A stretch of 64,000 nt of DNA, taken from the NCBI RefSeq assembly GCF_900143005.1, contig NZ_FRCS01000001.1:1116001-1180000 (forward strand), given 5' to 3'. The position numbers were made by a program, and so were the translations under genes. The DNA comes from Cryptosporangium aurantiacum (GTDB lineage: Bacteria; Actinomycetota; Actinomycetes; Mycobacteriales; Cryptosporangiaceae). Shown in pieces: positions 1,766 to 19,221 of this stretch (the first letter of the stretch is position 1; every line of letters begins with the position of its first letter). Under the pieces are notes generated by a model. That model did no database searches and was not told the DNA's origin. It was given only the letters and a program-made list of their open reading frames with translations.

Positions 1766-2648
1766 TCGGAGCGGATTTCTGCAGTGGTGGCGCCAGTGGT
1801 TCCCGAAGCGGGAGGCGGCGCAGACCACGCCGGATACGGTCTGCGATTCGCCGATGACGACGTTGCCGATGCTGGTCCCGGCGCGCGGCGAGGTGTTCGA
1901 CTTCCACCTCTACGTCCGTCTGCACTGGTCGAGCCCGACGCACTCGCTCCACCAGCTGGAGAACCTGAGCCACGCGCGCAGCCACACGGCCCTGGCCACG
2001 ATCCGGATGGCGGCGTGGGAGATCGCGCGCATGTACGAGCCCGGCGACACCGGACCGGCCGAGCACGCGGTCAACAACAGGTTCGCGCAGGGGCTCTGCT
2101 ACGACGACGCGTACGGTCGCACGATCCGCTGCGATCCCACCGTGCGGGTGCTGATGGATCCCCGCCTGCGCGAACACCTCGTGCAGTACCGGCTGGAGCA
2201 GGCCCAACAGCGTGAGGAACACCGCCTCGGGCTGGATCGGGCGCGCATGGTCGAAGAGCGCACGCAGTCCTGGCTGAACGCGCTGCGGACGTTCGAGGGT
2301 GCTCCGGAATCGGTCGACGGCCGGATGTCGGCGCCGAACCGGGACGGCAGCCGGACCCCGGAGGTGGACGAGGCCGAGGTTCGGCAGCGCCAGTTCCTGC
2401 TGCCGTTCGCTGCCAGCCTCAGCGATCAGCAGTTCGCCGAGGTCACGACCGACCTCTCCGAGACCCGGCGCGAGCGCGCCATCGAACTCGTCCAGGTACT
2501 GCGGGCCGCCCGGGGTGACCACCAGCAGGTCGGCCTGTTCGAGTTCGCCCGAGCCTACGACAAGGCCTACGAGATGTTCTGTCAGCAGATGGGGCTGCGT
2601 CCCTACTCGTTCATGCTCGCCGACTTCAACCAGGGAACGGACGAATGA
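1758..2648 (+). CDS. Uncharacterised soluble protein with central coiled coil
   Basis: A 296-residue protein with no signal peptide or membrane segment. The N-terminus is Trp/Arg-rich (FLQWWRQWFPKR). Residues about 130-190 are rich in Glu, Gln, Arg and Leu with a heptad-like pattern, suggesting a coiled coil. The C-terminal third is helical. No known motif is seen. The ATG overlaps the stop of the upstream HEAT-like gene by 8 nt and its own stop overlaps the lipoprotein start as ATGA, so the three genes are very likely translationally coupled and act together. Function unknown. Confidence 0.7.
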   Translation: MASRSGFLQWWRQWFPKREAAQTTPDTVCDSPMTTLPMLVPARGEVFDFHLYVRLHWSSPTHSLHQLENLSHARSHTALATIRMAAWEIARMYEPGDTGPAEHAVNNRFAQGLCYDDAYGRTIRCDPTVRVLMDPRLREHLVQYRLEQAQQREEHRLGLDRARMVEERTQSWLNALRTFEGAPESVDGRMSAPNRDGSRTPEVDEAEVRQRQFLLPFAASLSDQQFAEVTTDLSETRRERAIELVQVLRAARGDHQQVGLFEFARAYDKAYEMFCQQMGLRPYSFMLADFNQGTDE

Positions 2649-3877
2649 GGCGGTGGCGGGCCGCCGGTCTCGGCGTGGCGCTCGTGCTCGGCGTCGCCGG
2701 GTGCGGTCTCGGCGACCTGCAGAAGCGGCCGGACTCCGATCGGTGCGGCTGGATGCAGCAGGAATCCGAGGCACCCGGCGCGACCGTGATCCTGGTGGAC
2801 GTGTCGAACTCGACCCGGGGCGCGATCACGCGGGCGGGGTCGACCGGCGGTTCGGCTCCGCACTACGGAGCGGCGCTGGAGAAGGCGATCGAGGACGCCG
2901 TCGGCCGCCGCGACACGGTGTCGGTCGCGAGCTTCAGCGGGACGGCGGCGAACCTCGGTTGGGTCGTGACGGACCGGTCGACCGACTGGAAGAAGGACGT
3001 CAACAACGACCCGAATCAGCAGAGCCGCCGCGCCGAGGGTGTCCGGTGCCTGCTCGCGGACGCCGACCCGGTGCTCGGCGCGCGGCCGCTGGGCGCAGGC
3101 TCCGACATCCTGCAGGCGGTCGGCATCGGAGCCGGCCGCCTCCGCGAGGGCGGGGGCGACAAGCATCTGGTGGTGCTCAGCGACGGGCTGCCGACCACCG
3201 GCTGCGCGGATCTGACGAAGCTCGATCAGTGGACCGATGCCCAGGTCACCGGCATCGTCGACCGGTGCGTGCGGAAGAAGACGCTCCGGCCGGGCGATCT
3301 GGCCGGAGTGGACGTTTCGCTGATCGGTGTCGGGCACTCCGGGACCGGTTACCCGATCGCCGACAGCCAGCGCCGGGACTGGCTGAAGCGGCTCTGGACG
3401 GCGCTCTGCGAGCGGGCGGGCACCGCACGCCGGTGCGGTGTGGACACCCAGCCGATCGCCGCCGAGGACGACGACCCGCCGCCGTCGCCGGATGCCGCGG
3501 TCGACGACGTGGTGGTCCCGCTCGCCGGCAAGGTCACGGTCCGTCCGCTGCTCGGCGCGGCGCTGTTCGACGGCGACTCCGCGGTGCTCAGGTCGGCAGG
3601 CGAGCGGGCCCTGCGGGAGCTGGCCGAGTCGATCCGGACGGCGGACTGGGTGGAGGTCATCGGGTACGCCGCCCCGTACGGCAGCGCGCCGGACCTGCTC
3701 CGATTATCCCGGGCCCGCGCGGAGCGGGTCGGATCGTTCCTGGCCGAGCTCGGGGTGCCGGTCGTCGCGGTCCGGGGCGCCGGGGCGACCCGCTCCTGCC
3801 CGGATCCCGTGTTGGAAAGCCAGGTCGGCGCGGACGAGTGCTTCCGGCGGGTCGACGTCGTCGTGGGGAATTCCTGA
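2645..3877 (+). CDS. Lipoprotein with VWA domain and OmpA-like C-terminal domain
   Basis: A 410-residue protein. The N-terminus has a signal peptide with a lipobox ending GVAGC (Cys20), so the mature protein should be anchored to the outer face of the membrane. Residues about 47-235 form a von Willebrand A-type domain: the MIDAS motif DVSNS is at 52-56 and the second metal-site Asp is in VVLSDG (Asp180). Residues about 295-385 resemble an OmpA/MotB-like domain (FDGDSAVLRSAGERAL, then the LSRARAERV helix), a fold that usually binds peptidoglycan. The combination suggests a metal-dependent adhesion module tethered between membrane and cell wall. It lies in a cassette with a helical-repeat protein and a four-helix membrane protein, suggesting an envelope-spanning assembly; the role is unknown. 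Confidence 0.75.
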   Translation: MRRWRAAGLGVALVLGVAGCGLGDLQKRPDSDRCGWMQQESEAPGATVILVDVSNSTRGAITRAGSTGGSAPHYGAALEKAIEDAVGRRDTVSVASFSGTAANLGWVVTDRSTDWKKDVNNDPNQQSRRAEGVRCLLADADPVLGARPLGAGSDILQAVGIGAGRLREGGGDKHLVVLSDGLPTTGCADLTKLDQWTDAQVTGIVDRCVRKKTLRPGDLAGVDVSLIGVGHSGTGYPIADSQRRDWLKRLWTALCERAGTARRCGVDTQPIAAEDDDPPPSPDAAVDDVVVPLAGKVTVRPLLGAALFDGDSAVLRSAGERALRELAESIRTADWVEVIGYAAPYGSAPDLLRLSRARAERVGSFLAELGVPVVAVRGAGATRSCPDPVLESQVGADECFRRVDVVVGNS

Positions 3878-3888
3878 GAGGTAGATCG

Positions 3889-5223
3889 ATGAATGACCTG
3901 GCAGCAGCGAACGGCCGGGGCGGACCGGGCGCCGGACTGTCGTGGGCCGCGCCGATGCCGTGCGGCAACACACCGCCGGGCCCGGCCGTCCTGCCGCCGG
4001 AACCGACGACCGAGCAGATCGACGACGTCGAGGCCGCCGCGCTGCTGCGCGCGTTCGCGGAGGCCAACGCGTCGCTGGGGCGCGCGCACCAGACGCTGCA
4101 GGACCGGTCGAAGCGCATGCTCGAGACGTGGCACGCCGCGCGGCACACGATCGAGGGGGTCACCCGGTTCACCAACGCGGACGCGGTCGGGCAAGCGCGG
4201 TCCGAGGCGGAGCGGGTGGCGCAGCGGCACGCCGACGACGGCCCGGAGAACCGGCTCCGGCGGCGGGTGCGTCCGACCTGGTTGGTCTGGCCGGCGCTGG
4301 CCGCGAGCGCGGTCTTCGACGCGGCGTTCGTCGGCGTCGTCGTCCAGCAGATGCTCGACTTCGAGACCGGAAGCATCGCGTACTACCTGGCCTACCTCCC
4401 CGGTGCCGGGATGGCGATCGCGCTGTACGTGGCCGGCACGATGCTGGCCGAGAACCTGTTCCGGCACCGCGACCGGTCGAGCAGGCGGCCCACCCGCGAC
4501 CCGCTCACCCCGTGGACGCTCGCCAAGCGGGTGCTGTGGCAGTGGCGTCCGGAGCCCGAGGAGCGGAAGCCGAGCGATCTGCCGTGGCCGCGGCTGACCG
4601 TGCCGGTCGTGTTCGCCGCGCTCGTGCTCGGGTTGCTCGGCGTGTTCGGCTACATCCGTGCGGCGTTGGCCGTGCGGGACTTCCCCGAGCTGGCGCGCGT
4701 GCTCCCGGTGTTCGTCATCCTGCTGCTGTTGCTGAGCCTGTCGACGGTCGCGTTGAAGGTGCTCGTGCACAACCCCTACGCCGACCGTGCCGCGGAGGTC
4801 GGGAAGGCGGTGCGCGACGTCGAGAAGCGGGCCGCCGACCTGCAGCGGACGGCGCACGACGCGGTCGCGGCGCACACCGACGAGTGGAACACCTACCGCG
4901 CGCTCGTCGCGGGGTCGGAGGCCGAGGCCCACCGTGTCCTCCAGGAAGGGTGCGCCCGGATCCTCGACGAGCGCGGGCGGCGCGCGCGGCGCGGGACGCT
5001 CCGGTTGCCGCTCGACGGACCGCGCTGGCCGGCCGAGCTCTGGCGCGGCGAACCGGGCGGCGGCCCACGGATCGACTGGGCGCTGCTGGGTTACGCCAGG
5101 GACCTGGTCGGCAGGAACGACCCCGAGCTGCTCGAGCGGGACCTCGCGGCGGTCGTCGCCGCGCAGAACGCCCAGTTCCGCCGGGCGGAGCCCGCCGAGG
5201 GGTTCAGCCCCGGTCCGCGGTGA
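3889..5223 (+). CDS. Four-helix membrane protein with N-terminal coiled coil
   Basis: The start is the ATG at 3889 with GAGAGG just upstream, 11 nt after the lipoprotein stop; the frame stays open far upstream but that part has no protein-like composition. The 444-residue product has a soluble N-terminal coiled-coil region (residues about 40-120), two hydrophobic segments near 130-185, a basic loop, two more near 240-295, and a cytoplasmic helical tail of about 150 residues. It is the last gene of the cassette and probably its membrane component. Four helices next to an OmpA-domain protein recall MotA/MotB-type pairs, but I see no MotA sequence motif. Its 3' end overlaps the convergent receptor gene by 20 bp. 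Family not recognised. Confidence 0.7.
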
Positions 5224-6490
5224 CCAGACGGTCGAGGCCGGCCAGGATCTCCTGGGACGCCTGCGCCGCGGTATCCAGCTGGCGGGTGACCTCGGCCAGC
5301 ACCCTCGCCTGCTCGTCGACCGCGTCCGCGATGTCGTCCTGCAGCGCCTTGACCGACTCGACGACCTCGGCGGTGGACGTGAAGCTCTGCGCGACCGCCT
5401 CGGTCTCGCCGACGATCGCGGCGATCACCCGGCTCACCTCGCCCGCCGAAGACGCCGTCTCGTTGGCGAGCTGCTTGACCTCGCTCGCGACGACCGCGAA
5501 GCCCTTGCCGAGGTCGCCCGCGCGGGCCGCCTCGATCGTGGCGTTCAGCGACAGCAGGTTCGTCTGGCCGGCGAGCTGCGCGATCAGCGCGTTGACCTCG
5601 GCGATCTCGCCCACTGACCGCTCCAGGTTCTGCACGCGTTCGGTGGCGCTGGCCGCGGTCGCCTGACCGGCCGCGGCGGTCTCGGACGCGTGCGCGGAGC
5701 GCCGGGCGACGTCCTGCACGGCGCTGGACAACCGCCCCAGTTCGGAACCGACGACGTCGAGCGCGTCGAGCGCCACCCGGGCACCGGCGCCGATGTCGGC
5801 GGCGTCCCCGGCGAGCCGCTCGGAGTGCGCGACCGCCTCCTGGCCCCGCTGCCGTTCGGCCTCCGCCTGGCGTACGGCGGTCTCCTGGGCGGCCAGGTCG
5901 CGGTCGCGACGCTCCTGGTCGGCGATCGCGGCCATCGTCTCGACCTCGTGCTCGGCCTGCTCGGCGAAGTGCCAGAAGACGATGATGCCGACGATCTCCA
6001 GCGTGGCGAGCCCCGCGTGGACGCCGACCATCACGATCGCCTCGGCGGTGTGGGTGTGGTCGCCGAAGACCCGTTCCGGAGCCAGCAGGCCGAGGACGCC
6101 GTGGTGGATCAGCACCACCAGCACGGCCCAGAGCAGCGGCGTCCACTGCTGGTAGAGCGCGACGAAGATGAGGATCGCGTAGAGGTGGATGTGGGCGGCC
6201 ATCTGGCCGCCGGTCAGCTCGATCGCGACGAACGTGCACGCGATGAGCCCGATGCTGGTGAGCGCCGCCCGCGACTTCGGCGCCGGCGCGATCCCGCCCC
6301 CGACCGCGAGCGCCGCGATGGCCGCGGGGAGGACCACGGCCTCCCAGACCGGCATCGGGCCGAGCAGGCCGATCAGCACCAACACCGGGACGTGACACCA
6401 CAGCAGCCGGAGCATGATCCGGTGGCGCGCGGCCCACGACTCGTCGGAAAGGCGTCCACCGCGAGGTAGCCGTTCTAGCGCCGAAGTCAT
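5204..6490 (-). CDS. Methyl-accepting chemotaxis-type receptor
   Basis: A 428-residue receptor. I chose the ATG at 6490; a TTG 24 codons upstream would add a polar leader of little value. Residues about 28-175 hold five or six hydrophobic helices with short loops, so the sensor is membrane-embedded rather than a large extracytoplasmic domain, and no clear HAMP domain follows. The C-terminal half is the classic four-helix signalling bundle with the hairpin tip [20 protein letters not shown] followed by [15 protein letters not shown], which contacts CheA/CheW in known receptors. No che genes are in the window, so partners lie elsewhere. A motile or twitching lifestyle is plausible but not shown. 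Confidence 0.9.
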
Positions 6491-6609: not shown

Positions 6610-7560
6610 ATGGCCGCGCCGCCCCGATCGTCCGACGGGCCTTCCTACACCCGCCCGGGGACGCTCTACGGGCGGTCCGCGACCGTCTACGGCCGCACGG
6701 TCACCGACCGCGATACACCCGGCCACGACGCACCCGGCCACGACGCCCCGGATCACGACGCCCCCGACCGGAACGACGACCCGGCCGAGGACACCGGATT
6801 CCTCGGCTTCACCGCGGCGGCGTCGTCCGGACGTCACTCCGCGTCCGGTGCGGACCTCGATCCGCTGCCGGGAACGCTGACCGACGCCGGGCTCCCGGTG
6901 GTCGCGCTCGGGCTCGCGCTCGTCGCGCTCCTGATCGCCGGCGTCGCGACGATCACCGGCATCATGGCGGTCGGACGCGCGACGTCCGCGCAGGTCGCGG
7001 CCGAGCGGGCGGCGAGCGCGGCCGCCAGCGCGGCGGACGGCGTCCGGATCACGCCGGAGCAGCCGGCCTCACCGCAGGCGGTCGTCCCGGCGCCGGTGCT
7101 CCCGTCGCCGACGCCGTCCGCACCCGCGCCGGACCCGGACCGGCTCGATCCGAAGGCCGACTACACCACTGCGTACTCCGCGCAGCTCGTCCGCGTGCAG
7201 CCGAGCACGTGCGAGGGCACCGGCGTCGACCTGGACGAGCCGCGTGTCCTGCCGCCGACCGGCGCCGACGCCGCCTACCGCAACTGCGACGACGGGTACC
7301 ACCTGGACTTCGACGAGGCGGCCCGGTACGCGGTGGTGTCCGGACCGCGCACGACGGCCGGCGAGTGCGTGGACGCGATCCGGGCCAACCCGGGCGTCGG
7401 CTGGGTGTCGCCGACGCCGGGCACCACGGTCTGCGTCCTCACCTCACGGCTGGCCGCCGAGCCGCAGAACCTCACGACGAAGCTGGCGCTGCTGCACGTG
7501 GAGAACGTGGAGCCGGACGGGACGCTGGTCGCCGCGCTCACCGGCTGGGTGGTGCCCTGA
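6610..7560 (+). CDS. Single-pass membrane protein, unknown function
   Basis: Start ATG at 6610 with GGGAG about 8 nt upstream, preferred over a TTG at 6574. The 316-residue protein has a cytoplasmic N-terminal region with a short tandem repeat of [13 protein letters not shown] type near residues 38-55, one transmembrane helix at about 96-125, an Ala-rich stalk, a Pro-rich linker and an extracytoplasmic domain of about 140 residues with four cysteines that could form disulfides. It is divergent from the chemotaxis-type receptor, with about 120 bp between the starts. I do not recognise the C-terminal domain; an extracytoplasmic binding role is only a guess. Confidence 0.75.
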
Positions 7561-7574
7561 GCCGGGCACGGCCG

Positions 7575-9122
7575 TCAGGACGACACGGGCTCCGGGACGC
7601 TGACCATCCGGCCGAGCATCGCGTTGGCCTTCTCGCACGCCTCCAGCAGTTCCGGTAGCAGGTTGTGGCAGGCCAGTAGATCCCCGGTCTCGGCCGCGAC
7701 GCCGATCCGGGTGCACGCTCTGGCGACCCGTACCGCCCCGACCGTGATGCTCGCCGACCGCAGCGAGTCGGCGGCCGCGACCGTCTGCCGGGTGTTCGAG
7801 CGCCGAATCGCGCCCTGCAACCGCAGCCGCCGGCCGGGCAGCTCGGTCAGGTATGCCCGGAGCAGCCCCATCGCCGCGCTCCGGTCACCGTCCAGCTCCT
7901 CGGTCAGCCGGGTGACGACCGCGACGTCGACCTCCACCTGCGTCGGCAGCGGCGTGGCCGGAGCCGTGATCTCGGTCGGCGGCGCCGGAGCGTCCGCGCC
8001 GGGGGTGACCGTGGCGAGCGCGGCCCGCAACCGTTCCAGGTCGACCGGCTTGGACAGGAAGCCGTCCATGCCCGCGGCCAGACACTCCTCCTGGGTGCCG
8101 GACGACACGTCCGCGGTCACCGCGATGACCCGCACCCGGCGGGGAACCGCGAGCTGCTCCTCGGCCGCGCGGATCCGGCGGGTCGTCTCGATGCCGTCGA
8201 TGTCCGGCAGGTGCCGGTCCATCAGCACGACGTCGTAGTCACCCTGGATCGCGGCGGCGATCCCGGCCGCGCCGGTCGTCACCGTGTCCAACGCGTGTCC
8301 GAGCCGGGCGAACTGCCGCTGGGCCAGGATCCGGTTGACGGTGTTGTCCTCGACCAGCAGCACCCGGAGACCCATCCGGCTGGCCACCGCGCGCACGGCC
8401 GCACCCGGCACCGCGCTGTCGGCAGGCCGCAGCGGTGCCGAGAGCGTGACCGCGGTGCCACCGGCCGAGCCGCGGGTCGCGGTGAGCCTGCCGCCGAGCC
8501 GGTCGGCGAGCAACCGGGCCAGATAGAGCCCGAAGTGACGGCCGTCTTCCGGCGGCGTCGGCCGGGCCGAGTGCAATCCCGCCCAGACGTGCGCGGGGAG
8601 GCCCGGCCCGGCGTCGGTGACCGAGAACCGCACCGGCAGCCCTTCCGGGCCGGAGTGCCCCGCCCGCTCCACCGCGATCGCGAACGGCGGGCGGCCGTGC
8701 GCCACCGCGTTCGTCACGAGCTCGGACAGCGCGTCGACCAGCGCGTCCCGGTCGCCGACCAGCGAGGTCGGGATCCGCGGGTCGATCTGGACCCCCACCG
8801 ACGTGGTCGTGCTGACCACGGCGGTGACCTCACCCAGCAGTTCGGGCAGGTCGAAGGACCGCGCGGCCGGCTCGGCCGCGGTGGACCCGGAGGCCCTGGT
8901 GGCGAGCACCCCGAGCAGCGCGCCGATGCGGTTGCACGCGGACAGCACCTCTTCGGCGCCGCTGATCACCTGCTCGGCCAGCTGGCGCTGGCTCTCGTCG
9001 AGGCCCGCCATGACCAGCAGCTCACCGAAGCCGAGCAGCGAGTGCAGCGGCGTCCGGATACCGAACGTGAGGCTGTTGGACAGTAGTCGGACGATCGATT
9101 CAGCGGACTGGTCGGGGTTCAT
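7575..9122 (-). CDS. Hybrid sensor kinase-like protein lacking both phospho-histidines
   Basis: 515 residues without membrane segments. Order: a degenerate dimerisation/H-box helix (residues 10-70), a HATPase domain (about 120-232; N-box ELVTNAVAHG, G1 DAGPG, G2 GRHFGLYLAR), a receiver (about 252-372; VEDN, phospho-acceptor Asp302, Lys358), and an HPt-like helical domain (about 398-510). The H-box reads TFGIRTPLHSLLG, so Phe20 stands where HisKA kinases have the phospho-His. In the HPt-like domain, AAADSLRSAS puts Asp452 where AAHTLKGSS has His. Both canonical phospho-histidines are therefore missing while the ATP site and the receiver look intact. It lies 35 bp downstream of the AOS-GNAT fusion on the same strand (start ATG with GAGGA), so the two probably form an operon. 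It may bind ATP as a pseudokinase or receive phosphate on the receiver from another kinase; the intact hybrid kinase at 11794 is the obvious candidate. Confidence 0.85.
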   Translation of the reverse strand: MNPDQSAESIVRLLSNSLTFGIRTPLHSLLGFGELLVMAGLDESQRQLAEQVISGAEEVLSACNRIGALLGVLATRASGSTAAEPAARSFDLPELLGEVTAVVSTTTSVGVQIDPRIPTSLVGDRDALVDALSELVTNAVAHGRPPFAIAVERAGHSGPEGLPVRFSVTDAGPGLPAHVWAGLHSARPTPPEDGRHFGLYLARLLADRLGGRLTATRGSAGGTAVTLSAPLRPADSAVPGAAVRAVASRMGLRVLLVEDNTVNRILAQRQFARLGHALDTVTTGAAGIAAAIQGDYDVVLMDRHLPDIDGIETTRRIRAAEEQLAVPRRVRVIAVTADVSSGTQEECLAAGMDGFLSKPVDLERLRAALATVTPGADAPAPPTEITAPATPLPTQVEVDVAVVTRLTEELDGDRSAAMGLLRAYLTELPGRRLRLQGAIRRSNTRQTVAAADSLRSASITVGAVRVARACTRIGVAAETGDLLACHNLLPELLEACEKANAMLGRMVSVPEPVSS

Positions 9123-9157: not shown

Positions 9158-11671
9158 TCAGGCGGCCTGGGCGGCGATCGCCTCGGTGAGCTGGTTCAGG
9201 ACGTCGGCCTGGTACTGCTCGGTCGGCTGCAGGTAGACGACGCGGCGGCGGGGCCGCGCGCCGAACCGCGACTTCTGCAGGTCGGCGCTCATCCCCAGCA
9301 GCAGGCGCTTGGCGCCCCGGCGCTGCCCGGTGCGGAACGTCTGCCAGAGCGTCTGCTGGTAGCTGCGGTGCGATGCCACGTAGGTGTAGTCGAGGCCGAC
9401 GAACACCGGCGCGACGTGCTCCGGACCGTGGTAGAGCAGCGCGAACGCGATCGGCTCGTCCGGCCCGTCGGTCAGCCGGAGCAGGGCCAGCTCCCAGCAC
9501 GACTCGGCCAGCACCTCGTCGAACAGCCGCCGCGGCAGCGGGAACACGTTCAGCTCCAGGTTGCGGGCGTGCACGTTCCGGTAGAGGCGGTAGAGGTGGT
9601 CGCGCTCGGCCGTGGTCAGCGCCGCCGCGGCCGAGCTGCCACCGACGATGTTCTCCACCTGGTAGCGGTCCTCCCAGCTCAGCACCGCGGTGCGCTGGTG
9701 GTACCTGGCCTTCTTCGCCAGCCCGGCGAGGAACTGGGTGTCGTCGGCGAAATCGAGCTCACGCTCCCAGGTCGGCATCGTCGGCAGTCGGAGGAAGCCT
9801 TCCCCGACCAGGAAGTCGTGCAACTCCTGCGCCTCCGGCGAGCCGTCGTCCTCCAGGTCGCGCAGCGCGAGCGCGGAGGCGCCGACCTTCTCCTCCTCGG
9901 TCCGGGCGGCGGTCAGGAGCAGCCGGAGCGCCGCCCGCCAGTCCGCACTGCGGTCGAGCCAGAGGTGGTCGCCCTCGGTGATCAGCGAACCCATGCCGAC
10001 GACGGTCGACGTCAGGTACATCGGCAGCTCGGCGCGCCGCCGCTCGACCTCGGCCGAGACCTCGACCGTCGAGAGCATGTCGTCCTTCCAGCACGCGGTC
10101 GTGAAGAACGTCGCGGCGACCGGCGCGTCCGACGCGTCCCGCACGATCCAGTACGTGAACCGCCAGCCCTGCGGGTCGGACGCCGGGTCACCGTCGAACG
10201 CGCGCTCGAACGTGCGCAGCGCCGCCCAGCCGAACGCACCGCGTCCGGCGAGCATCCGGTCCCACTCGTCTCGGTCGACGGTCCCGATCGTGTCGTGCCG
10301 CTCCAGCCGCAGCTCACCGTCAGCCGAGGGTGCGGACTCCACCGAGTCCATCGCCCGGAGCGGGATCGCCGGCGCGACCGGCACCGGCCGGAGCCGCACC
10401 GGACGCCCGGCCAGCTGCCGGGAGAACACGCTGACCAGCTCCTCGGCGGAGCTGCCCTCGTCGGCGAGCGCGGCAGGAAGCGCCGCCGCGATCGCGTCGA
10501 CGAGCGCGACGATGTCGGCGTCGGTGTGGTGGTAGGTCAGCGTCACCCGGGCGCCGGAACGCTTCGCGGCCACCGCGGGGTACGACGCGGTGTCGACGAA
10601 GAAACCGGCGTCCAGCAGCCGCCCGGTGAGATTATAGGCGACCGGCGGCCCACCGGCCGCGATGTACCGGATCGGCGACTCGTCCACCGAGACCAGCGGC
10701 AGCCCCTGCTCCTCGGCCAGCCGGTTGAACAGGCGGATCGACGCCTGGAGCCGCTCCTGCCGCTCGGTGACCGCCGGCGAGAGGTGCCAGCGCGCGGACG
10801 CGATGACCGCGCCGAGCATCGGGGGCTGCACCGGGCCGGAGAAGATCATCGGGCCGCCGACCGTCCGGACCTGGCGGAGCAGCTCCTCGGTCGGGAACGT
10901 GAGCGCACCACCGGCGGCCGCGAACGACTTGTTCAGCGACGCGGCGACGAGCGTGCGCTCGGCGGCTGCCGGGGTGAGCCGGTCGAGCACGTGGCCGCGT
11001 CCGTTCTTCCCGGTCCACGACGCGCCGTGGGCGTCGTCGAGGTAGAGCCAGAGCTTCGGGAACTCCTCCACCATCCGGCACAGCGCGTCGACCGGCGCGA
11101 AGTCGGCGTACATGCTGTAGAGCCCGTCGCCCGCGTACCAGATCCGGTCGTGGGTGCGGGACAGCTCGGCGACCCGGGCGGCCAGCTTCTCCAGGTCGCT
11201 GTGCGGCACCAGCTCGACCAGCGTGCCCTGCGCCTGCGCCAGCTTGGCCGCGGTCTGGACGCTGGCGTGCACCTGGTGGTCGAGCAGCAGCGCGTCGTTC
11301 ACGCCGATCAGCGTCGGCATCGCCGCCATGTGCCCGAGCGTGGTGCTCGGCGTGATCAGCGTCGGCCGCCCGAACACCTCGCTGAGCAGCGACTCGGCCT
11401 CGGTGTACGCGGGGGAGGAGAGGTAGGCGCGGGACGAGGAGAACTGCGTTCCGTACCGGGTCACCGCGTCGGTCACGGCCTCGGCGAGCGCGGGGTGCGT
11501 CTCGAGCCCGAGGTAGCTGCACGAGCCGAAGTTGACCAGTCGGCGTCCACGGACGGTGACGATCCGGCCGTCGAGGCGGTCGTCCTCGGCGACGTTGTGC
11601 AACATCCCCCGGCGCACACCGTCGGAGATGATGTCGTCAACGGCGCGCAACACGTCAGCAGCGGTCGGCAT
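9158..11671 (-). CDS. Alpha-oxoamine synthase / GNAT (BioF2-like) acyltransferase fusion
   Basis: 837 residues from the ATG at 11671 (GGGAG about 10 nt upstream). Residues about 35-430 are a fold-type I PLP enzyme of the alpha-oxoamine synthase family (BioF, KBL, serine palmitoyltransferase, CqsA): NFGSCSYLGL at 47-56, LDDAHGA with Asp213 and His215, and the Schiff-base Lys248 in ASLNKSF. These enzymes condense an amino acid with an acyl-CoA and release CO2. After a linker, residues about 490-835 resemble a GNAT/FemAB-like acyltransferase (KKARYHQR; LLLGMSADLQKSRFGA near the end). The logical product is an aminoketone or sphingoid-like base N-acylated by the second domain, i.e. a ceramide-like lipid; a small signalling molecule of the CqsA/LqsA kind is the alternative, favoured by the two neighbouring sensor proteins. 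Substrates cannot be read from sequence. Confidence 0.85.
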   Translation of the reverse strand: MPTAADVLRAVDDIISDGVRRGMLHNVAEDDRLDGRIVTVRGRRLVNFGSCSYLGLETHPALAEAVTDAVTRYGTQFSSSRAYLSSPAYTEAESLLSEVFGRPTLITPSTTLGHMAAMPTLIGVNDALLLDHQVHASVQTAAKLAQAQGTLVELVPHSDLEKLAARVAELSRTHDRIWYAGDGLYSMYADFAPVDALCRMVEEFPKLWLYLDDAHGASWTGKNGRGHVLDRLTPAAAERTLVAASLNKSFAAAGGALTFPTEELLRQVRTVGGPMIFSGPVQPPMLGAVIASARWHLSPAVTERQERLQASIRLFNRLAEEQGLPLVSVDESPIRYIAAGGPPVAYNLTGRLLDAGFFVDTASYPAVAAKRSGARVTLTYHHTDADIVALVDAIAAALPAALADEGSSAEELVSVFSRQLAGRPVRLRPVPVAPAIPLRAMDSVESAPSADGELRLERHDTIGTVDRDEWDRMLAGRGAFGWAALRTFERAFDGDPASDPQGWRFTYWIVRDASDAPVAATFFTTACWKDDMLSTVEVSAEVERRRAELPMYLTSTVVGMGSLITEGDHLWLDRSADWRAALRLLLTAARTEEEKVGASALALRDLEDDGSPEAQELHDFLVGEGFLRLPTMPTWERELDFADDTQFLAGLAKKARYHQRTAVLSWEDRYQVENIVGGSSAAAALTTAERDHLYRLYRNVHARNLELNVFPLPRRLFDEVLAESCWELALLRLTDGPDEPIAFALLYHGPEHVAPVFVGLDYTYVASHRSYQQTLWQTFRTGQRRGAKRLLLGMSADLQKSRFGARPRRRVVYLQPTEQYQADVLNQLTEAIAAQAA

Positions 11672-11793
11672 GGCGGAGGGGCTCCCTTGTTGTCCGTTGA
11701 TTGCTCCGGCGCTGATCGGCGGCGTCCGTCCGGGATTGAGGGCTATAACCGGCCTGCAACCCGCCTCAGCATCCGCACACGCTTGCCGATCGG

Positions 11794-14055
11794 GTGGATG
11801 TGACGAACCGGACAACGGAACCGGCTACCTCCGGCGCGGCGTACAGCGTCGACGACCGGTCGGGCGTCGAGTTGCTCGTCGAGGTCGGAACGCTGCTCTC
11901 CGCGTCGACGGTGACGGCGCTGGACAGCGGCCTCGAACTGTCAGTGGTCGCGGTGGCCGCCTACGTCGGCGGCCGGCGCGGTGAACTCGTCGTCCGCCCG
12001 GCGTCCAACCCCGGCCCGACCGACCCGTTCCCGCTCGCCGGCGCCGAGGCCGCGGCGGGGCCCACCAGCCTGGCGGACGCACCGGGCCTCACGCCCGGCC
12101 TCCCGCCGATGCCCGAGCCCGGCGTCCACGCCGCATCGGTTCCGCCGCCGCTCACCCCGGCGGCCGGACCGGCTCCACTCCCCGACCTTCCGGCCGGGAC
12201 GCCCGGCATCGGCGCCGCGCCGGGCCTGAGCGACATCCAGTGGCAACGCCTGGACGAGGGGCGGCCGATCGTCGACGCGACCAGCCTCGGCGGCCCGGCC
12301 GTCCTGCTCCCGGTGTCGCACGAGGGGCAGGTCCTCGCCGCGCTGCGGATCGGCGGCCTGGTCAACGAGGCCGCGGTCGTCGAGAACCTGAAGTCCGGCG
12401 AGCGGGGCGAGGTCGCGGTCGGCGCGGGTGCGCTGATCGGTGCCGCTATCGCGCGCCGCCGCACGCTGGCCGCGGACGAGAGTGAAGAGCGCCAGGCCCG
12501 CGCGATCCTCGACCAGATCGGCTCGGTGATCGTCCAGGTCGACATGCTGGGCCGGATCTCCTACGTCAACCAGGCGTGGACCAGGCTGACCGGCATCCCG
12601 ACCGAGGACATGATCGGCCGGAACGCGATGGACCGCGTCCACCCGGACGACCACCACGTCGCGGCTGAGCACCTCGTCGAAGGCATGCGCGACCAGGCCC
12701 AGCGCACGATCAAGGACGTCCGGTTCCTCGACCGGGACGGCCGCCCGCGGTGGATGGAGGTCCAGGGCAAGGCGATCCTCAACGCCGCGGGCGAGGTCAT
12801 TGGGTTCGGCGGCACGCTGCACGACGTCACCGAGCGCCGCCAGGAGACGTTGAACGCGAACGCCGCCCGCGACCGCGCCGAGCAGGCCCGCGACCGTGCG
12901 GAGCGCTCGAACCGGGCGAAGAGCGAGTTCCTGTCCCGGATGAGCCACGAGCTGCGTACGCCGCTCAACGCGATCCTCGGGTTCGCCCAGCTCCTGGAGC
13001 TCGCCGAGCTGGACCACGAAGACGCCGACAACCTCAACCAGATCGTCAGGGCGGGCAGGCACCTGCTCGCGGTGATCAACGACGCGCTCGACGTCGCCCG
13101 GATCGAAACCGGGCGGCTCTCGCTCTCGGTCGAGGACGTCCGGGTCGAGCCGGTCGTCGACGAGTGCCTGGACTTGATGCGTCCGGCGGCGGAGGAGAAC
13201 GGCATCGCGCTGGGCCGGCCGACCGCGTCCGACGTCGGCATGATCGCCCGCGCCGACCGGCAGCGGCTCCGCCAGGTGCTGATCAACCTGCTGTCGAACG
13301 CGGTGAAGTACAACCGGCGCGGCGGTCAGGTCACGGTCGAGTACCACCCGGCCGACGACGCCGGGAACCGGGTCGCGCCCGAACTGGCCGACTGGCTGCG
13401 GATCACCGTGGCCGACAGCGGCATCGGCATCCCCGCCGACCGGCTGAACGAGGTCTTCGTGCCGTTCGAGCGGCTGGGTGCCGAGCGGACCGGGGTCGAG
13501 GGCACCGGCCTGGGCCTGTCGCTGGCCAAGAGCCTGATGGACGCGATGGGCGCCCGGATCAGCCTCAGCAGCATCGAGGGCATCGGGACCACGTTCCACC
13601 TCGACCTGCCCGCGATGGCAGCGATGCCGGACAGCGACCATCCCCCGGTCCTGGACCTCGGCCCGAACGGTCCGACGCTGGCCACGACGACCGTGCTCTA
13701 CGTCGAGGACAATCCGGCGAACGTCACGCTGGTGCAGCGGGTGCTGAGCAAGCGCGAGAAGCTCCACCTGGTCGTCGCGCCGGACGGTGCGTCCGGGGTA
13801 CGGCTGGTCGAGGAGCTCCGGCCCGCGCTGGTGCTGCTCGACGTGCACCTACCGGAGATGAGCGGCGACGAGGTTCTCGCGGCCGTGCGCAACCACGCCG
13901 ATCCGGTGCTGCGCCGGACGCCGGTCATCATCGTCACCGCCGACGTCTCCGGTGGCGCCGAGCGGCGGCTGCGGACGGCGGGCGCCGACGCGTTCATCGC
14001 GAAGCCGATCGACGTCCACCGGCTGCTGACCGAGGTCGATCTGCACCTCACGTGA
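11794..14055 (+). CDS. GAF/PAS hybrid histidine kinase with receiver domain
   Basis: 753 residues; start GTG at 11794, with a second GTG two codons later equally possible. Residues about 20-225 look like a GAF domain interrupted by a Pro/Ala-rich insert (about 78-145). A PAS domain with PAC motif spans about 232-348 (ending TLHDVTERR), then a short coiled coil, HisKA with intact SHELRTPLNAILGF (His385), HATPase (N-box NLLSNAVKYN; G boxes DSGIGIP and GTGLGLSLAK), and a C-terminal receiver (about 632-750) with VEDN, LLDVHLPEMSG and the conserved Lys in AKPIDV. No membrane segments, so it senses a cytoplasmic cue. It is divergent from the AOS-GNAT gene with 122 bp between starts, and could be the active kinase for the receiver of the defective partner. 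Confidence 0.9.
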   Translation: MDVTNRTTEPATSGAAYSVDDRSGVELLVEVGTLLSASTVTALDSGLELSVVAVAAYVGGRRGELVVRPASNPGPTDPFPLAGAEAAAGPTSLADAPGLTPGLPPMPEPGVHAASVPPPLTPAAGPAPLPDLPAGTPGIGAAPGLSDIQWQRLDEGRPIVDATSLGGPAVLLPVSHEGQVLAALRIGGLVNEAAVVENLKSGERGEVAVGAGALIGAAIARRRTLAADESEERQARAILDQIGSVIVQVDMLGRISYVNQAWTRLTGIPTEDMIGRNAMDRVHPDDHHVAAEHLVEGMRDQAQRTIKDVRFLDRDGRPRWMEVQGKAILNAAGEVIGFGGTLHDVTERRQETLNANAARDRAEQARDRAERSNRAKSEFLSRMSHELRTPLNAILGFAQLLELAELDHEDADNLNQIVRAGRHLLAVINDALDVARIETGRLSLSVEDVRVEPVVDECLDLMRPAAEENGIALGRPTASDVGMIARADRQRLRQVLINLLSNAVKYNRRGGQVTVEYHPADDAGNRVAPELADWLRITVADSGIGIPADRLNEVFVPFERLGAERTGVEGTGLGLSLAKSLMDAMGARISLSSIEGIGTTFHLDLPAMAAMPDSDHPPVLDLGPNGPTLATTTVLYVEDNPANVTLVQRVLSKREKLHLVVAPDGASGVRLVEELRPALVLLDVHLPEMSGDEVLAAVRNHADPVLRRTPVIIVTADVSGGAERRLRTAGADAFIAKPIDVHRLLTEVDLHLT

Positions 14056-14494
14056 GGGTGGGAGGCGCGGTGCCCGTTGGGTCGGCGGCGTGGGCGTCGT
14101 ACCAGGCGAGGAGGCCGGGGACGTCGACCCCGTGCGGTGGTGACTCGGCGTACGGACGCAAGCGGGCCACACCCCGGGCGAACAGGCGCGCCGATCCTGC
14201 CCGGTTGCCGCGCTGCGCGTGGGTGATCCCGACGCAGAACTGGGCGAGGCCCTGCCAGAGCTCACGCTCCGGCTCCGGCGCGGCCTTCCAGGCCGCCTCC
14301 AGCACCTCGTGCGCGGAGAACGCACGCCCACTGTCCAGCAGACGCTGAGCCTCGGCGAGCGTCTGCGGCGGCGGCAACGGCTCCTCCGAGACCGGGGGGA
14401 CGCCACGGGGGTCGCCGTACGGCAGCGGACGTCCCAGCGCATCCCGCGGACGCGCCTGTCGCGGCCGCCCACGGTCGTCCCGGTCCCGGTTCAC
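14048..14494 (-). CDS. DUF309 family protein
   Basis: 148 residues from a GTG at 14494 with a GGGGGAGA ribosome site 8 nt upstream; the longer frame runs into the hairpin upstream and has no family similarity. The core from about residue 36 (SEEPLPPPQTLAEAQRLLDS) and the motif AFSAHEVLEAAWKAAPEPER followed by WQGLAQ are typical of the DUF309 helical family, whose function is unknown. The ribosome site is inside the 3' arm of a strong hairpin (14503-14529), so translation may be conditional. The 3' end overlaps the convergent kinase gene by 8 bp. The yciI-like gene upstream is on the same strand. Confidence 0.8.
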   Translation of the reverse strand: MNRDRDDRGRPRQARPRDALGRPLPYGDPRGVPPVSEEPLPPPQTLAEAQRLLDSGRAFSAHEVLEAAWKAAPEPERELWQGLAQFCVGITHAQRGNRAGSARLFARGVARLRPYAESPPHGVDVPGLLAWYDAHAADPTGTAPPTLT

Positions 14495-15920: not shown

Positions 15921-17417
15921 GTGAAACGGAAAGCAGTGATCGGCGGGATCCTCACCGCGGTGCTGGCGCTCGCCGCCTGCGGCGGCGGAAACGACGACGG
16001 CGGGTCGGGGACGGCGGACGCGAACGCGATCATCCAGGTCGGCTCGCTCTACGAGCCGCAGAACCTGGACAACACGAACGGCGGCGGGCAGGGCGTCACC
16101 GAGGCGTTCAACGGCAACGTCTACGAGGGGCTGTTCAAGCTCACCGACGAGGGCAAGGTCGAGCCGCTGCTCGCGGCTGATCACCAGGTCAGCCCGGACG
16201 GCCTGACCTACACGTTCACGCTGCGCGACGGCGTGAAGTTCCACTCCGGCAAGGCGCTGACCTCGGCGGACGTCAAGTACAGCATCGAGAAGGTCACCGC
16301 GGAGAACTCGCAGTCCGCGCGCAAGAGCAGCTTCGAGGTGATCAAGAGCATCGCGACGCCGGACGCCAAGACGGTCGTCGTGACGCTGTCGAGCAAGTCG
16401 ATCTCGTTCGTCTACAACCTCAGCTACGTCTGGGTGATCAACGACGAGGCGAAGAACCTCAGCACGACCGAGGACGGCACCGGGCCCTACAAGCTCAGCG
16501 CCTGGAAGCGCGGCTCGACGCTGACGCTGACGAAGTTCGACGGCTACTGGGGCACAGCTCCGAAGAACAGCGGCGTGGTCTTCCACTACTTCACCGAGGC
16601 GACCGCGCTGAACAACGCGCTGCTCACCAACCAGGTGGACGTGGTGACCTCGGAGCAGTCGCCGGACGCGCTCGAGCAGTTCGACAACGACGACTACACG
16701 ATCAACGACGGCAAGTCGACGACGAAGCTGCTGCTCGCGTTCAACGACAAGGTCGCGCCGTTCAACAAGGTGGGCGTCCGCAAGGCCGTGTCCTCGGCGA
16801 TCGACGACGCGAAGCTCCTGCAGTCGATCTGGGGCGAGTACGGCACGCTGATCGGCTCGATGGTGCCGCCGACCGACCCCTGGTACGTCGACCTGACGAA
16901 GGTCAACCCGTACGACGTCGCGCTCGCGAAGAAGGAGCTGGCCGCGGCCGGCTACCCGAACGGTTTCACGTTCACGCTCGACACCCCGAACTACGACCCG
17001 CACCCGACCGTCGCGACGTTCGTCAAGTCCGAGCTGGCGAAGGTCGGCATCACGGTGAACATCAACGTGATCACCGCGGACGAGTGGTACACGAAGGTCT
17101 ACAAGAACCACGACTTCGCCGCGACGCTGCAGGAGCACGTCAACGACCGGGACGTGGTCTGGTACGGCGACCCGACGTTCTACTGGGGTTACGACAACCC
17201 GCAGGTCACCGCGTGGGTCAAGCAGGCCGAGCAGTCGGACACCGAGGAGCAGCAGACCGCGCTGCTCAAGAAGGTGAACGAGCAGATCGCGCAGGACGCG
17301 GCTTCGGACTGGCTGTACCTGTATCCGCAGATCGTGGTCGCGTCGTCGAAGCTGTCGGGGTACCCGGTCAACGGCCTGAACTCGCAGTTCTACGCGTACG
17401 GCATCACGAAGAGTTGA
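15921..17417 (+). CDS. ABC transporter substrate-binding lipoprotein, peptide/nickel family
   Basis: 498 residues from a GTG. The signal peptide ends in the lipobox LALAAC, followed by a Gly/Asp-rich tether. The body is a cluster C (SBP_bac_5) binding protein: SLYEPQNLDNTNGGGQGVTE near the start, then the typical YTFTLRDGVKFHSGKALTSA segment. It captures oligopeptides, nickel chelates or other small solutes outside the membrane and delivers them to the two permeases encoded next. Its stop overlaps the TTG start of the first permease, so all five genes form a coupled operon. Ligand identity cannot be deduced. Confidence 0.92.
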   Translation: MKRKAVIGGILTAVLALAACGGGNDDGGSGTADANAIIQVGSLYEPQNLDNTNGGGQGVTEAFNGNVYEGLFKLTDEGKVEPLLAADHQVSPDGLTYTFTLRDGVKFHSGKALTSADVKYSIEKVTAENSQSARKSSFEVIKSIATPDAKTVVVTLSSKSISFVYNLSYVWVINDEAKNLSTTEDGTGPYKLSAWKRGSTLTLTKFDGYWGTAPKNSGVVFHYFTEATALNNALLTNQVDVVTSEQSPDALEQFDNDDYTINDGKSTTKLLLAFNDKVAPFNKVGVRKAVSSAIDDAKLLQSIWGEYGTLIGSMVPPTDPWYVDLTKVNPYDVALAKKELAAAGYPNGFTFTLDTPNYDPHPTVATFVKSELAKVGITVNINVITADEWYTKVYKNHDFAATLQEHVNDRDVVWYGDPTFYWGYDNPQVTAWVKQAEQSDTEEQQTALLKKVNEQIAQDAASDWLYLYPQIVVASSKLSGYPVNGLNSQFYAYGITKS

Positions 17418-18403
17418 AACCGGTAAAGGTTCGGGAGCGCGGGTCGCTGGGGAGGTACCTACTCCGGCGGCTCGCGTTCCTGCTCGTGTCGTTGCTGCTG
17501 GCCAGCGTCGTGCTGTTCGTGCTGCTCCGGATGCTGCCGGGTGACCCGGCGAACGCGCTGCTCTCGGTCGGTGCGACGCCGGACCAGATCGAGGCGGCGC
17601 GGCACCAGATCGGCACCGACAAGCCGCTCGTCGAGCAGTTCCTGCCGTGGCTGGGCGACCTGGCGACGTTCTCGTTCGGGACGTCGTTCGTCAGCTCGCT
17701 GCCGGTGGGGCCGGAGATCGCGTCCCGGCTCGTCGTGACCGTGCCGCTGACGCTGCTCTCGTTCCTGCTGGCGCTGCTGATCGCGGTGCCGGTCGGGTTC
17801 GTCGCGGCGTGGCGCTCGCACACCTGGTACGGGGCTTTGCTGAACGGCGTGTCGCAGCTGGGCATCGCGGTGCCCGCGTTCTGGATCGGGATCCTGCTCG
17901 TGACGGTGTTCGCGCTGGAGTGGCGGGTGCTGCCGGCCGGTGGGTTCCCGTCCGACGACTGGGCCAGCTTTCCGGACGCGCTGCGCTCGCTCGTGTTGCC
18001 GATCCTGACGATCGCGCTGGTGATGTCGGCGTCGCTGATCCGGTACGTGCGGTCGGCGACGCTGGACGTGCTGGGCTCGGACTACCTGCGGACCGCGCGG
18101 GCGCTGGGCTCCTCGTTCGTCGGCGCGATGTGGCGGCACGGCGTGCGGAACGGGGCCGTGCCGGTGGTGTCGATCCTCGGCATCGAGCTGGCCACGACGT
18201 TCCTCGGCGCGGTGGTGGTGGAGAGTGTGTTCGCGCTGCCGGGGCTGGGGTCGCTGCTGATCCAGGCGATCGACCAGCACGACTACCCGGTGATCCAGGG
18301 TGTGCTGTTCGTCAGCACGCTCGCGGTGCTCGTCATCGGCTTCCTCGCGGACCTCGCGCAGCGGCTGATCGACCCGCGGCTCCGGTCGGGATCGGTCGTA
18401 TGA
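17414..18403 (+). CDS. ABC transporter permease, DppB/OppB type
   Basis: 329 residues. I start it at the TTG that overlaps the upstream stop as TTGA, because no ATG or GTG lies before the first membrane helix and GAAGAG precedes it. The N-terminal helix (RLAFLLVSLLLASVVLFVLL) followed by RMLPGDPANALL is diagnostic of the DppB/OppB family. Five further helices follow, with the EAA-type loop near DYLRTARALGSSFVGAMWRH that contacts the ATPases. It pairs with the downstream DppC-type permease. Confidence 0.9.
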   Translation: MKPVKVRERGSLGRYLLRRLAFLLVSLLLASVVLFVLLRMLPGDPANALLSVGATPDQIEAARHQIGTDKPLVEQFLPWLGDLATFSFGTSFVSSLPVGPEIASRLVVTVPLTLLSFLLALLIAVPVGFVAAWRSHTWYGALLNGVSQLGIAVPAFWIGILLVTVFALEWRVLPAGGFPSDDWASFPDALRSLVLPILTIALVMSASLIRYVRSATLDVLGSDYLRTARALGSSFVGAMWRHGVRNGAVPVVSILGIELATTFLGAVVVESVFALPGLGSLLIQAIDQHDYPVIQGVLFVSTLAVLVIGFLADLAQRLIDPRLRSGSVV

Positions 18404-19221
18404 GCCGCCGGCGATCGGTGGCGCTCGTCGTGGGCGGCGTGCTGGTCGGGCTCGTCGTGCTGATCGCGCTGGTGTCGCTGGTCTGGACGCCGTACGCGCC
18501 GGACGACACGACCGGCGGACGGCTGACCGGAGCCACGGCGGAGCACTGGCTGGGCACCGACAAGCTCGGCCGCGACCTGGTGACCCGGCTGATGATCGGC
18601 GCCCGGATCGCGCTGGCGACCGGGGCCGGCGCGGTGCTGCTCGGCGGCGTCGTGGGGGTGACGTTCGGGCTGGCGGCCGGGTTCGCCCAGCGGTGGTTCG
18701 ACGACACGCTCGCCGCGCTGCTGGACATCCTGATCGCGTTCCCGACGCTGCTGCTGGCGATGCTCGTGGTGGCCGCCCGGGGGGCGTCGCTGACGTCGGC
18801 GGTGCTCGCGATCGGACTGGCGATGGCGGCGATCGTGGCGCGGCTGACCCGGATCCTGGTGAAGCGGGTGCTGGCCCAGGACTACATCACCGCGTCCCGG
18901 ACGTCCGGCACGTCGTGGCCCCGCGTCGTCGTGGAACACGTGTTGCCCAACATCTGGCCGACGCTGAGCGTCAACCTCGCGTTGCAGTTCGGGCTGGCGG
19001 TGCTGGCCGAGGCGTCGCTGTCGTACCTGGGGCTGGGGCCGCCCCCACCGAACGCGTCCTGGGGGCAGCTGCTGCAGGAGGCCCAGGCCACCGTGCTCAC
19101 CGCGCCGATCGGTGCGCTCGCGCCGGGCATCGCGCTGGTGCTGCTGGTGGTGGGCGTGAACCTGGTGGCCGACGGGCTGCGGGACGTGGCGGATCCGACT
19201 CGTCGGAGGTCTTCGTCGTGA
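18400..19221 (+). CDS. ABC transporter permease, DppC/OppC type
   Basis: 273 residues; the ATG overlaps the previous stop as ATGA. It has the DppC/OppC signature HWLGTDKLGRDLVTRLMIGA after the first helix, the coupling loop QDYITASRTSGTSWPRVVVE, and the conserved segment EASLSYLGLGPPPPNASWGQ near the last helices. Forms the transmembrane channel with the DppB-type subunit. Its stop overlaps the GTG of the next ATPase gene. Confidence 0.92.
   Translation: MSRRRSVALVVGGVLVGLVVLIALVSLVWTPYAPDDTTGGRLTGATAEHWLGTDKLGRDLVTRLMIGARIALATGAGAVLLGGVVGVTFGLAAGFAQRWFDDTLAALLDILIAFPTLLLAMLVVAARGASLTSAVLAIGLAMAAIVARLTRILVKRVLAQDYITASRTSGTSWPRVVVEHVLPNIWPTLSVNLALQFGLAVLAEASLSYLGLGPPPPNASWGQLLQEAQATVLTAPIGALAPGIALVLLVVGVNLVADGLRDVADPTRRRSSS

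What the first reader, a model, noticed from the sequence alone, without database searches (positions are those of the whole stretch)
9158..14055. AOS-GNAT fusion enzyme next to two cytosolic hybrid sensor proteins
A PLP alpha-oxoamine synthase fused to an N-acyltransferase-like domain is followed 35 bp later by a hybrid sensor protein and is divergent from an intact GAF/PAS hybrid kinase. Alpha-oxoamine synthases make the autoinducers of the CqsA/CqsS and LqsA/LqsS systems and the sphingoid bases of ceramides; the fused acyltransferase would fit a serine-palmitoyltransferase plus bacterial ceramide synthase in one chain. Either way, an actinobacterial lipid or signal synthase with its own kinase pair looks like an undescribed module. 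The fold assignments are seen; the signalling link is inference from position.
Basis: partly seen in the sequence, partly recalled or inferred. Interest (0 to 1): 0.75.

Follow-up and report, generated by a model that had tools for sequence, protein, structure and literature searches.

The report
Fused lipid-type synthase with dedicated kinases
A two-part enzyme that probably makes an acylated aminoketone, perhaps a lipid-like signal, often travels with sensor kinases or other signalling genes in several bacterial phyla, which makes it a good candidate for an undescribed signalling circuit whose product is still unknown.

Summary
Window 9158-11671(-) encodes an 837-aa fusion of an alpha-oxoamine synthase (AOS; PRK07505/Alb29-like, catalytic residues intact) and a C-terminal GNAT region of the Acetyltransf_6/FemAB_like type. 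A hybrid-kinase-like protein (HK2) follows after 35 bp; an intact hybrid kinase (HK1) is divergent.

The kinase link is more than position. Of 80 fusion loci (window included), 56 have a two-component gene within three genes and 67 some signalling gene; of 40 non-fused AOS genes in 15 fusion-bearing genomes, 5 do. An HK2 orthologue was found only in the five of 12 genomes with the full module; two congeners lack just fusion+HK2 beside a conserved HK1. HK2 looks like a pseudokinase: H-box and Hpt histidines replaced in 5 of 5, receiver Asp kept.

Blastococcus keeps the fusion without either kinase.

Best reading: an N-acyl-alpha-aminoketone synthase with a dedicated, mostly cytosolic regulatory circuit. 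Product and direction of signalling are untested. Nine literature searches gave no description.

The parts
9158..11671 (-). AOS-GNAT fusion enzyme, 837 aa (ATG 11671; longer TTG ORF to 11815 unlikely)
   Evidence: single copy in genome
10490..11539 (-). alpha-oxoamine synthase domain (Pfam Aminotran_1_2); K248, D212, H215, R375 conserved in 80 of 80 sequences, H135 in 79 of 79 with a residue
9158..10336 (-). C-terminal acyltransferase region (392 aa): Acetyltransf_6 at 9287-9622; in some relatives the region aligns colinearly with FemAB_like PF04339
9123..9157 (.). 35-bp spacer between fusion and HK2, same strand (probable operon)
7575..9122 (-). HK2: hybrid-kinase-like pseudokinase (HisKA remnant with F20 in place of the H-box His, HATPase_c, REC with Asp, Hpt remnant with Asp in place of His)
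11672..11793 (.). 122-bp divergent intergenic region shared by fusion and HK1; alignment with the congener G003 (191 bases, gene ends included) has mean column identity 92%; no inverted repeat of 10 bp or more found
11794..14055 (+). HK1: intact hybrid histidine kinase (PAS, HisKA with H385, HATPase_c, REC), no TM helix predicted

Best explanation
The fusion condenses an amino acid with an acyl thioester (AOS half) and then N-acylates the resulting alpha-aminoketone in cis (FemAB_like/GNAT half), giving an N-acyl-alpha-aminoketone, chemically like an oxidised ceramide but not necessarily a ceramide. The neighbouring soluble kinases are the dedicated regulatory circuit of that product: HK1 is the working sensor kinase; HK2, which has lost both phospho-histidines but keeps its receiver aspartate, is an accessory receiver/scaffold that acts only together with the enzyme. 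In other lineages the same enzyme is coupled to other signalling proteins (soluble PAS kinase + LuxR regulator + DUF7793 in many Bacteroidota; GGDEF-EAL in Solirubrobacter; multi-TM kinases in a cyanobacterial and a myxobacterial bin). Shown by sequence: the domains, intact AOS residues, HK2's lost histidines, conserved linkage. Inferred: the chemistry, that the kinases sense the product rather than only controlling the gene, and the physiological role.
For: AOS catalytic residues invariant in 80 of 80 sequences; best PDB relative is Alb29 at 4.6e-46, which uses L-glutamate and acyl-CoAs (PMC11906848, passages). C-terminal region: Acetyltransf_6 in 49 of 68 and FemAB_like in 18 of 68 members scanned. 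Two-component gene within three genes in 56 of 80 loci and any signalling gene in 67 of 80, against 25 two-component genes among 622 genes five or more places away and 5 of 40 non-fused AOS genes. HK2 orthologue only in the 5 of 12 genomes with the full module. Fusion+HK2 absent beside a conserved HK1 in two congeners. Gene order varies while the partners stay together. No TM helix in HK1/HK2 of the window; of 62 HATPase genes within three genes of the fusion 51 have none.
Against: Blastococcus (three genomes) keeps the fusion with no HK1 or HK2 match at the thresholds used, and 13 of 80 loci have no signalling gene within three genes: the product has a use apart from these kinases. HK1 survives without the fusion in two congeners. 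Outside Bacteroidota only 9 of 20 loci have a two-component gene within three genes and 12 of 20 any signalling gene. Sensor architectures differ between lineages, so a common ligand is not evident. No DNA-binding regulator was recognised in the actinobacterial module. Loci are related by descent, so the counts are not independent. No structure could be predicted and no substrate is known.
Confidence: 0.5

Rival explanations
1. Envelope-lipid enzyme: a true serine palmitoyltransferase plus bacterial ceramide synthase in one chain; the kinases are ordinary regulators that turn the lipid on under stress.
For: AOS + FemAB_like-related domain in one chain; in Caulobacter a model has acylation before reduction, with Spt and bCerS both cytoplasmic (PMC11087976, passages), which would suit a fusion; Ser at S80, aligned to the Val of the KBL 7bxp, the position where AONS and SPT are said to have Ser (PMC11906848, passages). 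Explains Blastococcus keeping the enzyme without the kinases.
Against: Scores far below all three SPT cut-offs; five of 18 fusion-bearing genomes have a separate SPT above cut-off; no ceramide-reductase-like gene among the ten neighbours scanned. A PF04339 search of the own genome found nothing, but it also missed the fusion itself, so it says little. The Ser position is ambiguous by one residue in the Alb29 alignment.
Confidence: 0.17
2. Specialised-metabolite enzyme like Alb29: it makes a small acylated aminoketone natural product and the kinases are cluster-situated regulators.
For: Closest solved relative is Alb29 of albogrisin biosynthesis; L032 has two tandem fusions separated by a gene that looks like a SAM methyltransferase and followed by one that looks like a TonB-dependent receptor; patchy distribution.
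Against: No recognisable biosynthetic gene among the ten window neighbours scanned, three of which had no Pfam match (14048-14494 was not scanned); in the neighbour clustering the two families shared by far the most loci are two-component genes (58 of 80) and DUF7793 (50 of 80), the next reaching 9.
Confidence: 0.18
3. Secreted autoinducer system of the CqsA/CqsS or LqsA/LqsS type (alpha-hydroxyketone).
For: AOS next to histidine kinases; multi-TM kinases near the fusion in L033 and L089 and next to two of three AOS-only relatives of the phylum, L019 and L021.
Against: 61 bits against a cut-off of 428 for the autoinducer-synthase family; window kinases have no TM helix; the fused acyltransferase has no counterpart in CqsA/LqsA (recalled).
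Confidence: 0.08
4. Chance neighbours: the kinases have nothing to do with the enzyme.
For: Kinase genes are numerous in large actinobacterial genomes; Blastococcus lacks the link; the loci are not independent.
Against:: enrichment, HK2 tied to the module, joint absence of fusion+HK2 beside a conserved HK1.
Confidence: 0.03

Closest known systems
Alb29 (Streptomyces albogriseolus AOS, PDB 8XHA)
   Same: Best solved sequence relative of the AOS half (4.6e-46); AOS chemistry with acyl-CoA (PMC11906848, passages).
   Different: Only about 400 aa, no acyltransferase half; albogrisin pathway enzyme, no kinase link known to me.
Serine palmitoyltransferase + bacterial ceramide synthase (Spt/bCerS)
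   Same: AOS chemistry; C-terminal half related to FemAB_like, the family I recall for bCerS.
   Different: Separate genes in Caulobacter (PMC11087976, passages); SPT cut-offs not met; no kinase pair known to me.
CqsA/CqsS and LqsA/LqsS
   Same: AOS gene beside histidine kinase genes (recalled for Cqs/Lqs).
   Different: Different AOS family, fused acyltransferase, no TM sensor in the window, pseudokinase partner.
NCBIfam PRK07505 (hypothetical AOS subfamily)
   Same: Best NCBIfam model for the window protein and for the seven relatives scanned; the eighth protein is the genome's own BioF-like gene.
   Different: Below its cut-off (262.5 v 342 bits); the model (405 positions) covers the AOS half only.
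PfSgaAB of Pseudomonas fluorescens (AOS with SPT activity)
   Same: Shows that an AOS outside the canonical pathway can make sphingolipids (PMC12134224, passages).
   Different: Partner is a PKS, not an acyltransferase fusion or kinases.

Membership tests
alpha-oxoamine synthase superfamily (fold-type I PLP) | PLP-binding Lys with conserved Asp, His pair and substrate Arg | tested here: met
   K248, D212, H215, R375 in 80 of 80; H135 in 79 of 79 with a residue; roles assigned from recalled AONS biochemistry
CqsA/LqsA autoinducer synthase (NF005526) | score above curated cut-off 428 bits | tested here: not met
   61.1 bits
CqsS/LqsS-type system | multi-TM sensor kinase next to the synthase (recalled) | tested here: not met
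   no TM helix in HK1 or HK2 of the window by a crude hydropathy scan; met in some distant loci such as L033 and L089
Serine palmitoyltransferase (NF047599/47600/47603) | score above cut-off (500/640/670 bits) | tested here: not met
   128.4/131.6/88.4 bits
Serine palmitoyltransferase + bCerS pathway | L-serine + long-chain acyl thioester as substrates; N-acyl-3-ketosphinganine product | not testable with these tools
   needs enzyme assay or lipidomics
bacterial ceramide synthase / FemAB_like PF04339 | PF04339 match of the C-terminal region | tested here: inconclusive
   18 of 68 members match at E<=0.01, best 1.9e-07, colinear over up to positions 2-313 of 369 (L066); the window member itself matches only PF13480; that bCerS is PF04339 is recalled (Caulobacter does carry a PF04339 match)
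BioF / KBL housekeeping enzymes | score above cut-off (426.45 / 460 bits) | tested here: not met
   165.1 / 133.9 bits; the genome has a separate BioF-like gene, 377 bits, itself below 426.45
functional hybrid histidine kinase (HK2) | H-box phospho-His and Hpt phospho-His | tested here: not met
   H-box His replaced in 5 of 5 (F, F, Q, Q, Y), Hpt His replaced in 5 of 5 (D, D, E, E, G); positions judged from the motif, not from a structure
functional hybrid histidine kinase (HK1) | SHELRTPL H-box and HATPase_c domain | tested here: met
   H-box in 5 of 5 aligned orthologues; HATPase_c above cut-off in the window copy, L018, L022 and L024; the L018 orthologue has no receiver domain

The most novel reading that the evidence does not exclude
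A phylum-spanning, undescribed class of intracellular lipid-signal systems: a single-chain N-acyl-aminoketone synthase whose product is read in the cytosol by dedicated soluble kinases, with a phospho-histidine-free pseudokinase (Actinomycetota) or a STAS/SpoIIAA-like DUF7793 protein (Bacteroidota) as the product-binding or relay partner.
Probability: 0.3. Interest if true: 0.88.

Novelty: new variant of a known kind. Interest (0 to 1): 0.62.

Why it matters
Few bacterial signal synthases based on alpha-oxoamine synthases are known, and those I know of (CqsA, LqsA) serve membrane receptors. A fused synthase-acyltransferase tied to soluble kinases in Actinomycetota and Bacteroidota, and to other signalling genes elsewhere, would add a chemically different signal or lipid class and give a first functional lead for DUF7793 (PF25056), its constant neighbour in Bacteroidota. 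It also warns that AOS genes fused to or beside FemAB_like domains should not be annotated as ceramide synthesis without assay. It is directly testable: two congeners that lack just the fusion+HK2 pair are natural controls.

Tried and rejected
CqsA/LqsA, SPT, BioF and KBL membership: rejected on curated cut-offs. Housekeeping role: unlikely, the genome has another BioF-like gene and two of four genomes of the genus lack the fusion. A TTG start at 11815: rejected. PDB profile search of the C-terminal region: nothing useful, best E 0.55. Inverted repeats in the intergenic region: none in the window, G003 and G010 copies, two weak pairs in L024. An attempt to fetch an authentic bCerS by way of an alphaproteobacterial SPT neighbourhood failed: 0 of 119 genomes; the class reached was probably Bacteroidia, because the fusion of L097, titled Beijerinckiaceae, groups inside Bacteroidota and its genome carries a Bacteroidota-type SPT above cut-off. 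Literature: nine searches (listings and abstract beginnings seen) gave no paper on an AOS-GNAT fusion with kinases or on DUF7793; passages of five papers were seen. Most subscription papers are not in that library, and the 2022 paper on bacterial ceramide genes, which another paper cites for Actinobacteria, is not held, so it may already mention such genes.

Limits of the counts: 80 loci were analysed, window included: 77 of the 80 kept (of 197 stretches encoding a relative), plus the window, L017 and L018. L023 was dropped as a duplicate of L018; L095 and L098 are AOS-only. Alignment A2 holds 68 of 80 C-terminal regions: four partial or odd ones dropped, eight more, mostly near-duplicates, left out. 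Alignment A6 holds 40 of the 50 DUF7793 proteins listed, out of 59 in the cluster. Genes were called by my own script, without a trained gene finder. Fisher tests ignore relatedness. The control set is 40 non-fused AOS places that I picked, mostly the best-scoring, from 15 of the 18 genomes. In some searches only part of the first-look candidates was scored in the large genomes (for instance 126 of 201-283 and 90 of 231-324 in G001, G002, G454 and G455); all were scored in the three Blastococcus genomes.

Corrected while checking this report: the HK2 H-box letters (F, F, Q, Q, Y), the identity range (34-90%), the GAF statement for L022 and the extent of conserved flanks in the congeners.

Full report
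What is there. The window's minus strand carries a two-gene unit: the fusion (9158-11671, 837 aa) and, 35 bp downstream, HK2 (7575-9122). HK1 (11794-14055, +) is divergent across 122 bp. The fusion's first half is an alpha-oxoamine synthase, closest among curated models to PRK07505 (262.5 bits, below its cut-off) and among solved structures to Alb29. Catalytic Lys, Asp, His and Arg are invariant in 80 of 80 sequences. The second half (392 aa) matches Acetyltransf_6 in the window copy; of 68 members scanned 49 match Acetyltransf_6 and 18 FemAB_like, the latter colinearly over up to positions 2-313 of 369. W503, D531 and R604 of this half are invariant in 80 of 80. The two halves therefore fit an enzyme that makes an aminoketone and acylates it; this is inferred from family chemistry, not shown.

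Distribution. The fusion is patchy: 2 of 4 genomes of the genus, the window's own included. Of 396 genomes drawn across the phylum only the window's own has it full length; in that search only two candidates per genome were scored. One scan of 84,980 species found 197 stretches encoding a relative, of which the best 80 were kept: mainly Bacteroidota, also Actinomycetota (Solirubrobacter among them), cyanobacterial bins, Xenococcus, a myxobacterial bin and Pseudomonadales. On a quick AOS tree the window groups with G003, G010, Actinoplanes, Dactylosporangium, Geodermatophilus, Blastococcus and a Frankiales bin (12 rows, SH-aLRT 100).

Link to signalling. In 80 fusion loci a HATPase or receiver gene lies within three genes in 56, and some signalling gene (also GGDEF/EAL or DUF7793) in 67; among genes five or more places away 25 of 622 carry a two-component domain. 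Split by group: Bacteroidota (L097 included) 47 and 55 of 60, others 9 and 12 of 20; of 62 HATPase genes within three genes of the fusion 51 have no TM helix by a crude scan. Forty non-fused AOS genes from 15 fusion-bearing genomes: 5 with a two-component gene within three genes and none with DUF7793 or GGDEF/EAL; Fisher p about 1.6e-9 for 56/80 v 5/40, ignoring relatedness. The partners differ by lineage: in many Bacteroidota the divergent order is DUF7793, soluble PAS/HisKA_3 kinase, LuxR-type regulator, or downstream DUF7793 then a hybrid kinase; in three Solirubrobacter loci a divergent GGDEF-EAL protein; multi-TM kinases in L033 and L089. DUF7793 was found only in Bacteroidota loci (50 of 60). 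It resembles SpoIIAA-like proteins (22 of 40 members at a loose E<=0.5, best 2.9e-07) and the solved protein 3bl4 (1.8e-14).

The actinobacterial module. Fusion, HK1 and HK2 occur together in the window genome, G003, G010, Actinoplanes and Geodermatophilus, in three different arrangements. A search of 12 genomes for HK2 gave orthologue-level matches only in those five, in G010 as two pieces on two contigs; other matches were weaker and partial. HK1 also occurs without the fusion in congeners G001 and G002. In G002 the ORF homologous to window gene 6610-7560 ends 28 bp from the HK1 ORF, and the fusion and HK2 are missing; G001 shows the same layout. Beyond HK1 at least two window genes are conserved; on the other side only the one gene was matched. 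So fusion+HK2 behave as one cassette beside HK1; whether it was lost in these congeners or gained in the others was not tested. Blastococcus (three genomes searched) keeps the fusion and has no HK1 or HK2 match at the thresholds used. Dactylosporangium (two genomes) keeps only the AOS half, has no HK2 orthologue and at most weak HK1-like (2.8e-77, 43%) and HK2-like (4.8e-28) matches in G455. HK2 has lost the H-box His (F, F, Q, Q, Y) and the Hpt His (D, D, E, E, G) in 5 of 5, while the receiver Asp remains in 5 of 5: a conserved pseudokinase, whereas HK1 keeps its H-box in 5 of 5.

Against the reading. Thirteen of 80 loci show no signalling gene nearby, and Blastococcus shows that the enzyme can be kept without HK1 and HK2. 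The dependence is one-sided (HK2 goes with the fusion, not the reverse), which fits kinases that serve the enzyme or its product, but does not tell whether they sense the product or control the gene. Sensor architectures differ between lineages. The actinobacterial module has no recognised DNA-binding regulator.

Chemistry. Five of 18 fusion-bearing genomes have a separate SPT above cut-off, so at least there the fusion is not the organism's only candidate for that role. The residue aligned with the Val of KBL 7bxp is Ser (S80, Ser in 78 of 78 with a residue), as reported for AONS and SPT (PMC11906848, passages); the alignment to Alb29 is ambiguous by one position there, so this is a hint only. 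A cytoplasmic Spt followed by a cytoplasmic acylation is one model in Caulobacter (PMC11087976, passages), while others proposed reduction before acylation (PMC11324152, passages).

Verdict. A real, conserved association of a fused AOS-acyltransferase with signalling genes, for which I found no description. It looks like a lipid or metabolite synthase with a dedicated regulatory circuit; it is not a member of the Cqs/Lqs or SPT families by the tests run.

Noticed in passing
window 5204-6415 (-): A methyl-accepting chemotaxis protein (MCPsignal 1.3e-31) lies two genes beyond HK2 on the same strand; an OmpA-domain gene sits at 2645-3877.
   Followed up: no
window 15936-19221 (+): Oligopeptide-type ABC transporter genes (SBP_bac_5 and two BPD_transp_1) that were not matched in the congener stretches compared.
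   Followed up: partly
L032 5863-12418: Two tandem AOS-GNAT fusions in a Pseudomonadales bin, separated by a gene that looks like a SAM methyltransferase and followed by one that looks like a TonB-dependent receptor: may be a biosynthetic cluster.
   Followed up: partly
L019 10469-13518; L021 2090-6635: Stand-alone AOS relatives (37-40% identical) next to histidine kinases that look to have many TM helices: an AOS-kinase pairing without the acyltransferase half; the third such relative, L020, has none adjacent.
   Followed up: partly
L097: Record titled Beijerinckiaceae, but its fusion groups inside Bacteroidota and its genome has a Bacteroidota-type SPT above cut-off: the title is probably wrong or the bin mixed.
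   Followed up: partly
L025-L028, L030: In Blastococcus and a Frankiales bin the fusion sits beside genes that look like menaquinone synthesis (MenA, MenC, MenD, MenE; names from reading the sequences) instead of kinases.
   Followed up: no
L037 9456-9845 (-) and other loci: DUF7793 (PF25056), a SpoIIAA-like small protein, is the most constant neighbour of the fusion in Bacteroidota: within three genes in 50 of 60 such loci and in none of the other 20.
   Followed up: yes
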